Shown: positions 25,002-56,563 of the stretch, one piece after another | Layout of the letters: every line of letters begins with the position of its first letter | Numbering within the stretch: the first letter of the stretch is position 1 | Assembly: GCF_900111195.1 (NCBI RefSeq) | Contig: NZ_FOGL01000007.1 | Location: 78,079 to 142,078 of the forward strand | From: Gracilibacillus ureilyticus | GTDB taxonomy: Bacteria > Bacillota > Bacilli > Bacillales > Amphibacillaceae | Direction: 5' to 3' | Length of the DNA: 64,000 nt | The notes under the pieces: model-generated | The model's input: the letters and a program-made list of their open reading frames with translations, nothing else | The model's database searches: none | Told to the model about the DNA's origin: nothing | Translations under genes and position numbers: made by a program

Positions 25002-25042
25002 ATTTCGACATGTATGGTTACATACATGTCGAAATTATTTTT
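25002..25042 (+). terminator. Hairpin terminator between yerA and yerB
   Basis: Perfect 15-bp stem ATTTCGACATGTATG / CATACATGTCGAAAT with a 4-base loop, then TATTTTT. It ends only 20 bases before the yerB start, so it may also attenuate yerB. Confidence 0.85.
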
Positions 25043-25061
25043 GGAGAGAAGGTGTGATCCT

Positions 25062-26108
25062 GTGAAGTGGAAAATATTTTTTGTAATTATATTGTCAATA
25101 TTCCTGGTTGCCTGTTCGGATAAAGAAAACGTGCCGGAAGGAGAGAGGCAGGAAGAAGCTAAAACCCCAGTTGCAACGGCAGCAGATGAACCGGACAAGC
25201 CTGAAGAAAAAACAGAACCAGAGATAACAGCGCCATTTACAGGACTTCCTGTTGAGGAGGAATTAACAAACCGGATGGTAGCGGTTATGGTAAATAATCA
25301 TCCATCAGCACGGCCTCAAACAAGTTTATCGAAAGCGGATATTGTCTTTGAAATTTTAGCAGAAGGTAATATTACAAGGTTTATGGCACTGTACCATAGT
25401 GAAATTCCTGATAAAGTCGGACCTGTGAGAAGCGCGAGACCATATTATTTCAATCTTGCAGATGATTATGGTGCTATGTATGTCTATCATGGAGCGATTT
25501 ATTTTATTGAGGACATGATAAAAACTGGAGCTGCGGATGGGTTAAATGGTATGTATTATGATAATGATAAAGTTCTGTTTGAACGATCTTCAGACAGAGT
25601 AGCCCCGCATAATTCCTATGCATATTTTGATGGCATATACCAAAGAGCGGAAGAGAACGGTTATGAAACAGAACAGACATATGAGTCACTGCTTTTCAGT
25701 GATGAAGAGGTAGACGGAAACAAAGCAGAAGATATCCAATTTAGTTACGGGAATTATACGGTAAGATATGTTTATGATGAGAACGCAGATCAATATGTAA
25801 GATACAGTGATGGAGAACAGACAGTTGAATATAGTGAAAATACTCCAATTGAAATTAGCAATGTACTGATCCTCGAAACTGCACATCAAGTAGTTGATGA
25901 TGTTGGGCGCCGTGAAATTGATATGGAATCCGGAGGAGATGCTTTATTACTCCAGAAGGGTAAAGTGCAAAACGTGCAATGGGAGCGAATTGATGGTAGA
26001 ATTATTCCAACGATAGATGGTGAAGTTGTTCCTTTAGTTCCAGGTAAAACGTGGGTAAATGTTATTCCGGAGAATCCTGGGATCGAAGGTGTGATATTCA
26101 CTGAATAG
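25062..26108 (+). CDS. yerB: DUF3048 lipoprotein YerB
   Basis: A 348-residue lipoprotein. GTG at 25062, with AGAAGGTG 7 bases upstream, gives a signal peptide KWKIFFVIILSIFLVAC with lipobox LVAC and modified Cys at residue 18. An acidic linker (about 25-60) leads to the DUF3048 domain: MVNNHPSARPQTSLSKADIV, then GPVRSARPYY and a C-terminal domain with LLLQKGKVQNVQW and VPLVPGKTWV. Anchored outside the membrane; function unknown. An in-frame upstream ATG at 25014 lies inside the yerA hairpin and is unlikely. Confidence 0.9.
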   Translation: MKWKIFFVIILSIFLVACSDKENVPEGERQEEAKTPVATAADEPDKPEEKTEPEITAPFTGLPVEEELTNRMVAVMVNNHPSARPQTSLSKADIVFEILAEGNITRFMALYHSEIPDKVGPVRSARPYYFNLADDYGAMYVYHGAIYFIEDMIKTGAADGLNGMYYDNDKVLFERSSDRVAPHNSYAYFDGIYQRAEENGYETEQTYESLLFSDEEVDGNKAEDIQFSYGNYTVRYVYDENADQYVRYSDGEQTVEYSENTPIEISNVLILETAHQVVDDVGRREIDMESGGDALLLQKGKVQNVQWERIDGRIIPTIDGEVVPLVPGKTWVNVIPENPGIEGVIFTE

Positions 26109-51981: not shown

Positions 51982-51991
51982 AAAAATGATG

Positions 51992-52027
51992 TCCTCAGCT
52001 TGTACAGAGCTGAGGATTTCCGTTTTT
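51992..52027 (+). terminator. Terminator of dgkB
   Basis: 9-bp stem TCCTCAGCT / AGCTGAGGA, 7-base loop, then TTTCCGTTTTT. Confidence 0.8.
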
Positions 52028-52120: not shown

Positions 52121-53608
52121 ATGTATTGTCAAAAATGCGGAAACCAAATAGAGCAACGTGCAAAATACTGCCCACGCTGCGGAAAACCAATAAAGAAAAA
52201 GTCTAACGGTCTTCTTATTACAACAATCATTTTCCTGTCAGCTATTGCAGCTGTTGTATTATATTTTGTCGGCACAGAATATAAAGAACTTCAGCTAACC
52301 AAAACTGCTGCTATTGATAAAAGTGAAGAAGAGCAGGAAATTGTAGCAACGGATGATAATCCAGAAGAGGAAAGTCCTGTGGAAGAGGAGACTGCTAAAG
52401 ATAAAATCATTGACCAGTCAAAAGCAAGTGACCGTGAAGTTGCGGATATCATTACAGACGCCCAAACCAGAGTTTTTACTATTTTCAGTGATTACGGCCA
52501 GGGATCGGGATTTCTTATTAATGATTTTGGTGACGTTATGACAAATGCTCATGTAGTAGAAGGCAGTTTTTATGTTACGGTAAAAGGGTCTGAGGGTACA
52601 GAGTATGATGGTTACCTGATTGGCTACAGTAATGATACAGATATTGCTATCATAAGAGTCGAATCGTTAGCGGGCAAGACACCCCTTAGTCTTGAGGTAA
52701 CAGAGAAATCCGTGCTGGGAGATGAAGTGATTGCACTTGGTAGCCCGCACGGTTATGAAAAAACGGCGACACTGGGAAATATCAGTGGAGTTGACAGAAC
52801 TTTTACCATCGAGCCACATTATTACGAGGAAGTATACCAGATTTCTGCACCTATTGCGCCGGGAAGCAGTGGTGGTCCATTGCTGGATCAGTCAACAGAA
52901 AAAGTCATTGGAATCAATTCGGCTCGCCATGATGAAGAAGCAACAATTGGTTTTAGTATTCCACTGTACCAGATCACTCCCTTAATGGATGAATGGGTTT
53001 CTAATCCGATGGGAGAAGATGAGATATACAGTCTGTTTTATAATCAGAATGGCGATTATTTTTACGATGATTTATATGATGGAACGGATTCCTATTTTGA
53101 TGGCGGATATTACGATGATTCAGAAAGCTATTACTATTATGATACATACACTGACACTTATTACTTTTACGATCCTTATGAAGACGAATATTATTATTAT
53201 GATGAAAATCTTGATGATTTCTATTATTATGAAGATGAATATTATAGTGACGATTATTATGAGGAATATTATAATGATGACTATTATTACGAAGACGGAT
53301 ATTATGAAGAAGATTACTACTACGAAGATGGCTATTATGACGAAGAATATTATTATGAAGATGATATTTATTATGATGAAGACTATTACGAGAATGAAGT
53401 CTATGAGGATGTCCTGAACTATGAGACAGAGACATATAATGGAACGGAAACTGCGGAAGAAAGCAGTAAAGAGGAAGAAGTATTCACAGAAGAGGATGTA
53501 AGTGAAAGTGATTCCAATAGGGACTCTAATTTAGGGGATTCAAATGGTAATGAATTTGACTTAGATGAGAAGAATGAATTAGAAGAAGTACTCCCAAATG
53601 CGGGATGA
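52121..53608 (+). CDS. Membrane-anchored trypsin-like serine protease with zinc ribbon and Tyr/Asp/Glu-rich tail
   Basis: A 495-residue, four-part protein. Residues 3-20: zinc ribbon CQKC...CPRC. About 30-50: one membrane helix, so the rest is outside. About 65-100: acidic linker. About 104-298: HtrA/DegP-like trypsin fold with triad His144 (TNAHVV), Asp174 (DTDIAI) and Ser250 (PGSSGGP). There is no PDZ domain. Residues about 307-443 hold roughly 49 Tyr and 51 Asp/Glu in 137 positions by hand count, with no Lys, Arg, His or Cys. The last 50 residues are Glu/Ser/Asn-rich. ATG at 52121 with AGGTGGAG; the GTG at 52112 is inside that site. It is inserted between dgkB and rlmCD. Confidence 0.85.
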   Translation: MYCQKCGNQIEQRAKYCPRCGKPIKKKSNGLLITTIIFLSAIAAVVLYFVGTEYKELQLTKTAAIDKSEEEQEIVATDDNPEEESPVEEETAKDKIIDQSKASDREVADIITDAQTRVFTIFSDYGQGSGFLINDFGDVMTNAHVVEGSFYVTVKGSEGTEYDGYLIGYSNDTDIAIIRVESLAGKTPLSLEVTEKSVLGDEVIALGSPHGYEKTATLGNISGVDRTFTIEPHYYEEVYQISAPIAPGSSGGPLLDQSTEKVIGINSARHDEEATIGFSIPLYQITPLMDEWVSNPMGEDEIYSLFYNQNGDYFYDDLYDGTDSYFDGGYYDDSESYYYYDTYTDTYYFYDPYEDEYYYYDENLDDFYYYEDEYYSDDYYEEYYNDDYYYEDGYYEEDYYYEDGYYDEEYYYEDDIYYDEDYYENEVYEDVLNYETETYNGTETAEESSKEEEVFTEEDVSESDSNRDSNLGDSNGNEFDLDEKNELEEVLPNAG

Positions 53609-55321: not shown

Positions 55322-56308
55322 TTAATCCTCCACATAGAAAATTCCTTCTGCTGCCACTTTATCTTTCTTCACTATTTTCATATTGTAAGTTCCACTCTCA
55401 ACTGGGGCTTCTGTGTAATTAATTACACCCTCCCAGTCCTGGGGAACCTCCTCTTCCCACCAATCATAAATTGTTGTGGAATCTTTGTCGATTTTTTCAA
55501 TAAAAACTTGGTATTTTCCGCCTTCCCCCTCACCAAAATAAAATGAGTAATGAATCGTTTCAGATGGTTTGAACTCATTACCTGATCTTGTAATTATGTT
55601 ATCCTCTTGTGCGTAGCCAAAGGTAACTGGTTCAGTAGCAAATAGTGACGAAACAAAAAAAGTGGAGAAAATGGCGTATGTAATAAACGATATTATACCT
55701 ATTGTCATACCTGTATAGCTGGTACCTCCAGCTTTCTCTATCTCCTTTACCGGGTTAGAAGGGTTCCTTTTTTTGATTTTATTAATCTTTGACATTGCCT
55801 GTTTATAATAGAGGTGATCACCGGATAAACCAAGTACGATACATGTGAAAATGCCGAATATATAATATAGATCTGTGTTTAAACCTTGGGAATATACAAT
55901 GAGATCAAATAAGAACCAAGCAATAATTAGTGCAAACAATACATGATACATTTTACGATAGCCTAACCATATAAAACTAAATAAAAGTGCAAGAATGTTA
56001 ATACTTATTCTTCTAACTCCATCCTTTGTATTAACTTCCTTTTGAGTATTAGGAAATATTTTACAAAAGGCTGACCAAAGGAAACTAAATAATACCTGGT
56101 AGTTCATACTTATCATCTTATGTTCCTTTGTATGAAATCCCCATTTTTCAAGATAATAATTAGAACTATTGCCGACATAACTTTCCAATGTTAGATGATC
56201 ACATGTTACGTTTTCTTCTTCCGTTGAATTTATATCATCATTTATCGGGAAATCGCATTCACACTGAGCGTGTTCCTCCTGGCTTGTTTTACAATTAGAA
56301 CAACACAT
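55322..56308 (-). CDS. DUF2628-like membrane protein with Cys-rich N-terminus
   Basis: A 328-residue protein. Residues 2-18 hold five Cys (CCSNC...CEC), a possible small zinc site. Residues about 55-180 resemble DUF2628: a conserved segment WSAFCKIFP, two close membrane helices with the phrase WLGYRKMYHVLFALIIAW, and two more helices. A fifth helix (about 205-225) leads to an extracellular beta-rich C-terminal domain (about 235-328) with YSFYFGEGEGGKYQVFIEK. ATG at 56306-56308 with GGGAGGG 9 bases upstream; an in-frame start 57 bases earlier has no site. Function unknown. Confidence 0.75.
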   Translation of the reverse strand: MCCSNCKTSQEEHAQCECDFPINDDINSTEEENVTCDHLTLESYVGNSSNYYLEKWGFHTKEHKMISMNYQVLFSFLWSAFCKIFPNTQKEVNTKDGVRRISINILALLFSFIWLGYRKMYHVLFALIIAWFLFDLIVYSQGLNTDLYYIFGIFTCIVLGLSGDHLYYKQAMSKINKIKKRNPSNPVKEIEKAGGTSYTGMTIGIISFITYAIFSTFFVSSLFATEPVTFGYAQEDNIITRSGNEFKPSETIHYSFYFGEGEGGKYQVFIEKIDKDSTTIYDWWEEEVPQDWEGVINYTEAPVESGTYNMKIVKKDKVAAEGIFYVED

Positions 56309-56563
56309 TATTAAATCCCTCCCTTCATAAAATCGGACCGGAAATATACAGGTATATTTTACCATATATTAACGTTTTAGTTGTGTAAATTTCAAAATAT
56401 TGCAGATGTTCGTTCTATATTCGCACACCTGCTTAAGGTTCCTTATGTTATGATTTTTCAATTTCGATATTTTATAGCGGTAATAATATTCTCTGAATAA
56501 TTTCGTTTTATGAGTATGAAGCACGTCTTGGCATGTTTTAAATGTACGCAGACCTGAATTATT

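What the first reader, a model, noticed from the sequence alone, without database searches (positions are those of the whole stretch)
53039..53449. Extracellular protease tail made almost only of Tyr, Asp and Glu
Residues 307-443 have about 36% Tyr and 37% Asp/Glu, no basic residues and no Cys, in irregular repeats such as YYYEDGYYEED. It follows an HtrA-like protease domain that has a full triad, a membrane anchor and an N-terminal zinc ribbon, but no PDZ. Such a chain could bind calcium or other metals, act in wall attachment, be oxidised to dityrosine cross-links, or sense salt. I know of no described domain with this make-up.
Basis: partly seen in the sequence, partly recalled or inferred. 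Interest (0 to 1): 0.68.

Follow-up and report, generated by a model that had tools for sequence, protein, structure and literature searches.

The report
Polyanionic Tyr-rich tail on membrane protease
A membrane-anchored bacterial protease carries, in place of the usual regulatory domain, a long and very negatively charged, tyrosine-rich tail; related bacteria keep the charge but not always the tyrosines, and some add what look like calcium-binding loops, so the tail is probably a real and undescribed working part rather than repeat junk.

Summary
In detail: residues 307-443 hold 49 Tyr and 51 Asp/Glu of 137, with no Lys, Arg, His or Cys. The 495-aa protein is zinc ribbon - membrane helix - trypsin-like protease (full triad, no PDZ) - tail. 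It belongs to a family found in 43 of 397 genomes of its order and in 1 of 398 of a phylum sample, the window's own. In 52 family rows analysed, what persists is a short conserved junction and a negative tail (median net charge -59, range -89 to -25; 26 shorter paralogues: median -12). High Tyr/Trp content is the commonest version (30 of 52), not the rule. Ten of 52 end in two EF-hand-like loops; another lineage has an acidic linker plus a TcaA domain. Tail dN/dS is 0.05-0.09 in the 5 of 8 pairs where it could be computed, which speaks against neutral repeat expansion. Some tails end in aromatic decamers modelled as beta strands. The gene was probably acquired horizontally: 16 of 16 congeners lack the junction and 14 of 14 examined have an empty site. 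Best reading, unproven: a polyanionic, probably Ca2+-binding arm doing PDZ-like work. Dityrosine cross-linking is not supported as the family's function.

The parts
52121..53608 (+). whole gene, 495 aa: zinc ribbon - membrane helix - trypsin-like protease - junction - polyanionic Tyr-rich tail
52121..52189 (+). N-terminal zinc ribbon (residues 1-23), inferred cytosolic
   Evidence: Pfam Zn_Ribbon_1 1.7e-07, above cut-off; C3, C6, C17, C20 invariant in A6
52208..52276 (+). membrane helix (about residues 30-52)
   Evidence: hydrophobic stretch by eye; helix 30-63 in the model; no TM predictor was run
52424..53011 (+). trypsin-like (HtrA-type) protease domain, residues 102-297; H144, D174, S250
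   Evidence: Trypsin_2 2.5e-28; PDB Deg/HtrA matches; ten-residue pLDDT means 65-97, 13 of the 20 blocks of residues 101-300 at 86 or more
53012..53155 (+). conserved junction, residues 298-345 (motif with FY..G, YFDGG, Y.Y)
   Evidence: alignments A1, A3, A5-A7; profile search
53123..53251 (+). aromatic decamers, residues 335-377 (overlap the end of the junction)
   Evidence: period 10, z 3.0; low-confidence hairpin 358-361/366-369; counterpart in L100 modelled as strands every 10 residues
53252..53449 (+). Tyr/Asp/Glu repeats, residues 378-443
   Evidence: residues 335-443 show period 11, z 5.7; composition
53450..53605 (+). acidic Ser/Glu/Asp/Asn C-terminal end, residues 444-495, net -16
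51991..52017 (+). terminator-like stem after the upstream gene (dgkB, name recalled)
   Evidence: consensus match only

Best explanation
The protein is a PDZ-less, membrane-anchored HtrA-type protease of the Bacillales cell surface. The zinc ribbon lies in the cytosol, one helix crosses the membrane, and the protease and its tail lie outside (inferred). The tail is a polyanionic arm (about -60 charges, -70 here) placed where PDZ domains sit in HtrA. It most likely gathers divalent cations, Ca2+ first, and through them or directly holds positively charged or unfolded secreted clients near the active site, so that it does PDZ-like regulatory and client-binding work. The aromatic residues add sticky or partly ordered (beta-hairpin) elements in many lineages. 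Shown: architecture, conservation of junction and charge, purifying selection in the pairs measured, exchange with EF-hand-like and TcaA modules. Inferred: topology, Ca2+ binding, client binding, regulation.
For: The 52 family rows form one side of a branch against 5 shorter paralogues (SH-aLRT 100, quick tree). Tail net charge median -59 (-89 to -25) in the 52 rows, nearly the same in aromatic (-59.5), acidic (-58.5) and EF-hand-like (-59) classes, against -12 (-22 to -3) in 26 shorter paralogues. Two DxNxDGxx[DN] loops in each of 10 of 52 rows. Tail dN/dS 0.05-0.09 in the 5 of 8 pairs where it could be computed (core 0.03-0.05). Triad residues present in 51 of 52 rows (48 by motif; 3 by sight), the other being a truncated frame. 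Three read members of one genus with Asn in place of the catalytic Asp also have less acidic tails (about -20 to -23). A lipoprotein-like relative keeps a Y/E/D tail with another anchor.
Against: No binding, activity or localisation data. Pfam EF-hand/dockerin matches are below cut-off in the two tails scanned (best E 0.0027). 2 of 52 rows are 'polar' (median net -41) and 2 have more than 5 K+R. The g18 relatives (about -20 to -23) and the f20 g40 relatives (short acidic linker), both outside the 52, lack long strongly acidic tails. The window's tail is mostly modelled below pLDDT 50, so no site can be named. Asp/Glu-rich chains bind Ca2+ weakly in general (recalled), so binding alone would prove little.
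Confidence: 0.4

Rival explanations
1. Client-capture arm without metal: the acidic-aromatic chain acts as a polyanionic chaperone that grips cationic, unfolded secreted proteins and feeds them to the protease.
For: It sits where PDZ would be; many Tyr/Trp and almost no Lys/Arg.
Against: Does not explain the EF-hand-like loops of one group or the low-aromatic acidic tails (10 of 52).
Confidence: 0.25
2. Cell-wall spacing or sensing: the polyanion brush sets the position of the protease relative to teichoic acids and peptidoglycan, bridged by cations.
For: In the f20 g40 genus the same kind of protease ends in TcaA_5th (Pfam 1.8e-18, L187); TcaA affects wall teichoic acid in S. aureus and is modelled with an internal zinc finger, one membrane span and an external body (PMC10328498, abstract and one passage).
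Against: Analogy through a domain the window protein lacks; Pfam finds no wall-binding domain in it.
Confidence: 0.15
3. Tyr-rich chain made for oxidative dityrosine cross-linking or wall attachment.
For: 36% Tyr in the window tail.
Against: 22 of 52 rows are not aromatic-rich by my threshold.
Confidence: 0.05
4. General acidic composition of haloalkaliphile exoproteins, without a specific role.
For: Some hosts are alkali-loving by name, such as Litchfieldia alkalitelluris.
Against: 26 shorter paralogues, 22 of them from the window's own bacterial family, have only -3 to -22 in the same position.
Confidence: 0.08
5. Neutral repeat expansion.
For: Tail length varies and repeats (periods 10, 11) are visible.
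Against: Tail dN/dS 0.05-0.09 in 5 of 8 pairs; at the DNA level only three overlapping 15-mers (one 17-base stretch) recur exactly in the 411 bases.
Confidence: 0.04

Closest known systems
HtrA/DegP/DegS serine proteases (trypsin-like, S1C; class name recalled)
   Same: Protease fold and triad; best PDB matches HhoA, Deg1, HtrA; N-terminal membrane anchor as in DegS and Gram-positive HtrA (recalled)
   Different: No PDZ; N-terminal zinc ribbon; polyanionic tail; 126 bits against the 416-bit cut-off of NCBIfam degP_htrA_DO
TcaA/YvbJ-type zinc ribbon membrane proteins
   Same: Zinc ribbon, one helix, external body; a relative of this protease has a TcaA_5th domain
   Different: The window protein has no TcaA domain; TcaA is not a protease (recalled)
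Shorter TM-trypsin paralogues of the same order (374-415 codon frames; called 'NTF2-like' in my scripts, a guess by eye that Pfam does not bear out)
   Same: 41-51% identical over the protease domain in the 26 compared
   Different: No zinc ribbon match in the 10 scanned; C-terminal part of net charge -3 to -22, unassigned by Pfam (10 of 10)
Choline-binding repeats (LytA) and OCRE (RBM5) aromatic hairpin repeats
   Same: Aromatic-rich short beta repeats (recalled)
   Different: Only chance-level sequence similarity (E 2.3-9.3) and no Pfam match; 10-residue period

Membership tests
HtrA family | trypsin-like domain with His-Asp-Ser | tested here: met
   Trypsin_2 2.5e-28; H144, D174, S250 invariant in A6
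[quoted passage not shown]
   no PDZ at E <= 1
HtrA family | passes a curated HtrA cut-off | tested here: not met
   126.3 against 416.2 bits for degP_htrA_DO; all 15 NCBIfam models listed are below their cut-offs
HtrA family | oligomer, regulated protease-chaperone activity | not testable with these tools
   -
TcaA/YvbJ | N-terminal zinc ribbon and one membrane helix | tested here: met
   (helix by model and eye)
TcaA/YvbJ | TcaA external domains | tested here: not met
   absent in the window protein; TcaA_5th in relative L187
EF-hand/dockerin | DxNxDGxxD loops | tested here: not met
   none in the window tail; two loops in 10 of 52 relatives, below Pfam cut-offs in the two scanned
OCRE / choline-binding repeats | match to the family profile | tested here: not met
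   no Pfam match at E <= 1 for the window tail or for the decamer tail of L043

The most novel reading that the evidence does not exclude
The junction plus acidic-aromatic tail is an undescribed regulatory module that replaces PDZ in a Bacillales branch of HtrA-like proteases: a Ca2+-responsive polyanion, partly folded as an aromatic decamer beta-meander, that gates the protease and traps cationic clients, interchangeable in evolution with EF-hand loops and a TcaA domain.
Probability: 0.2. Interest if true: 0.7.

Novelty: new variant of a known kind. Interest (0 to 1): 0.5.

Why it matters
HtrA-type proteases are described as protease plus PDZ. A branch spread over many Bacillales genera that replaced PDZ by a charge-conserved arm would show another way to regulate surface quality control, and would give a testable case where net charge rather than sequence is what selection keeps.

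Tried and rejected
Rejected or set aside: simple repeat junk (dN/dS); a second copy in the genome (tail query finds only itself at E <= 1); OCRE or choline-binding repeats as homologues (the best PDB matches of the decamer profile are designed SAKe proteins with no stretch passing alone). The 50 rows shown of the PDB fold search (of 1548 matches) are HtrA/Deg-type proteases, and the 50 shown of the viral search are mostly proteases, polyproteins or unnamed; neither tells anything about the tail. The decamer profile matched 5 of 397 genomes, 4 of which had supplied rows to the profile; the fifth is an unrelated 345-aa protein in G279. My label 'NTF2-like' for the shorter paralogues is not borne out: Pfam assigns no C-terminal domain in 10 of 10 scanned. 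A first synteny run used a wrong reading frame for dgkB and was redone.

Papers: searches gave no description of such a tail in the listings (titles and starts of abstracts) or in the passages read of two papers; this covers only the open-licence library and those terms.

Rows dropped or not read: of the 43 order genomes, tails of 34 were read; G449 was fetched but its frame was not extracted, and G318, G500, G307, G401, G331, G442, G220 and G379 were not fetched. The 52 rows leave out 11 rows with identical protease cores and duplicates L036, L062, L065; the g18 relatives L051-L054; the zinc-ribbon-less third protease of G027; and, fetched after the tree, L187-L192. The tail classes use my own thresholds. 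The tree is the 'quick' kind, 19 of 54 inner branches open. The empty-site check used 14 of 16 congeners (G003 and G008, the least complete, left out).

Full report
What is there. The ORF at 52121-53608 (+) encodes 495 residues. Pfam finds a zinc ribbon (2-23) and a trypsin-like peptidase (128-265), nothing in the tail and no PDZ. The strongest PDB relatives by sequence are HhoA, Deg1 and HtrA proteases, and the 50 fold matches shown are of the same group.

A family, not an oddity. A junction query found 19 of 159 genomes of the window's bacterial family, in 7 of 46 genera. A junction profile found 43 of 397 genomes of the order, in 20 of 135 genera, and 1 of 398 in a phylum sample, the window's own. 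Named members include Metabacillus idriensis, M. iocasae and M. bambusae, Lederbergia citri, Peribacillus kribbensis, Domibacillus, Ornithinibacillus, Paucisalibacillus globulus, Bacillus badius, Litchfieldia alkalitelluris and Sutcliffiella horikoshii (L085-L104, the first 20 of 80 loci returned; the other 60 were not examined).

What is conserved. In 52 family rows (rows left out are listed under Tried and rejected) the tail after the protease has a median length of 151 (75-205) and a median net charge of -59 (-89 to -25). Cys occurs in 1 of 52 and more than 5 K+R in 2 of 52. By my thresholds 30 are aromatic-acidic, 10 acidic, 10 EF-hand-like and 2 polar. The control is 26 shorter TM-trypsin paralogues: same position, median -12 (-22 to -3), median acid fraction 0.18. 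The charge ranges do not overlap. So charge is the family trait and tyrosine a common way to fill the chain. Against this: three g18 members that I read have tails of only about -20 to -23, and all three have Asn where the catalytic Asp should be; the fourth g18 genome has a broken frame. This may be a hint that the acidic tail is lost with the activity, but it is a single genus.

Module exchange. Ten rows (the B. badius - Domibacillus group) end in two DxNxDGxxD-type loops; they fall on one side of a branch, with weak support (56). Pfam sees them as dockerin/EF-hand only below cut-off in the two tails scanned. In genus g40 of family f20 the tail is a short acidic linker followed by a TcaA NTF2-like domain (Pfam scan of L187, 1.8e-18; L188, L189 and L191 look the same by eye). 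G465 has a lipobox-like start (by eye) in place of zinc ribbon and helix, yet a Y/E/D-rich tail. These fit an external arm whose job is tied to the protease, and the loops point to Ca2+.

Selection. Of 8 pairs computed, 5 gave unsaturated tail dN/dS of 0.05-0.09 (core 0.03-0.05); three of these five are the three pairs among the same three sequences. In the other 3, the window's own pair included, synonymous sites were saturated. Window against L070: amino-acid identity 87% in the core, 73% in the junction, 55% in the tail with 43 gap columns. The tail evolves faster than the core but, where measurable, under clear constraint.

Structure. In the window model the ten-residue pLDDT means over residues 101-300 are 65-97 (13 of 20 at 86 or more; the block with S250 is at 65), and the tail is mostly below 50 except a weak hairpin at 358-369. 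In L100 the C-terminal decamers are modelled as strands every 10 residues (396-447), pLDDT about 70-80, and the sequence has period 10 (z 6.4). The window's decamers look like the same kind of repeat, but weaker (z 3.0).

Origin in this genome. All 16 congeners searched lack the junction at E <= 1e-6. In the 14 congeners examined, the two neighbours (dgkB and rlmCD, names recalled) are adjacent with about 161-328 bp between the matches, where the window has 1.8 kb. The nearest relatives are two genomes of another bacterial family (SH-aLRT 99 for the three together). Horizontal gain is the simplest reading; repeated loss is not excluded. The closest relative has a frameshift after its zinc ribbon, real or a sequencing error.

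Interpretation. I take the tail as a polyanionic, probably Ca2+-binding arm that does PDZ-like work. The steps shown are anatomy, conservation, constraint and exchange; topology, binding and regulation are inferred. [quoted passage not shown] The TcaA points come from the abstract and one passage of PMC10328498.

Noticed in passing
L197:1360-2394 (G279): An unrelated 345-aa frame carries about four of the same aromatic decamers.
   Followed up: partly
L190 (G465), 385-codon frame: Trypsin-like protein with a lipobox-like start and a Tyr/Glu/Asp tail: another anchor, similar tail.
   Followed up: partly
L052, L053, L054 (genus g18): Family members with Asn in place of the catalytic Asp and Pro/Gly/Asn/Ser-rich, less acidic tails; a fourth (L051) has a broken frame.
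   Followed up: partly
L034:7122-12631 (G027): Three related proteases close together: one has a Ser/Thr/Lys-rich tail and no zinc ribbon, one an Asn/Gln/Ser/Pro tail, one an acidic Tyr tail.
   Followed up: partly
L185:5986-7082 (G467): Closest relative has a frameshift just after the zinc ribbon.
   Followed up: no
window 25014-26108 (+): Second most Tyr-rich frame of the window: an ordinary DUF3048 protein.
   Followed up: yes
window 55322-56365 (-): Cys-rich N-terminus in a protein with a DUF2628 match.
   Followed up: no
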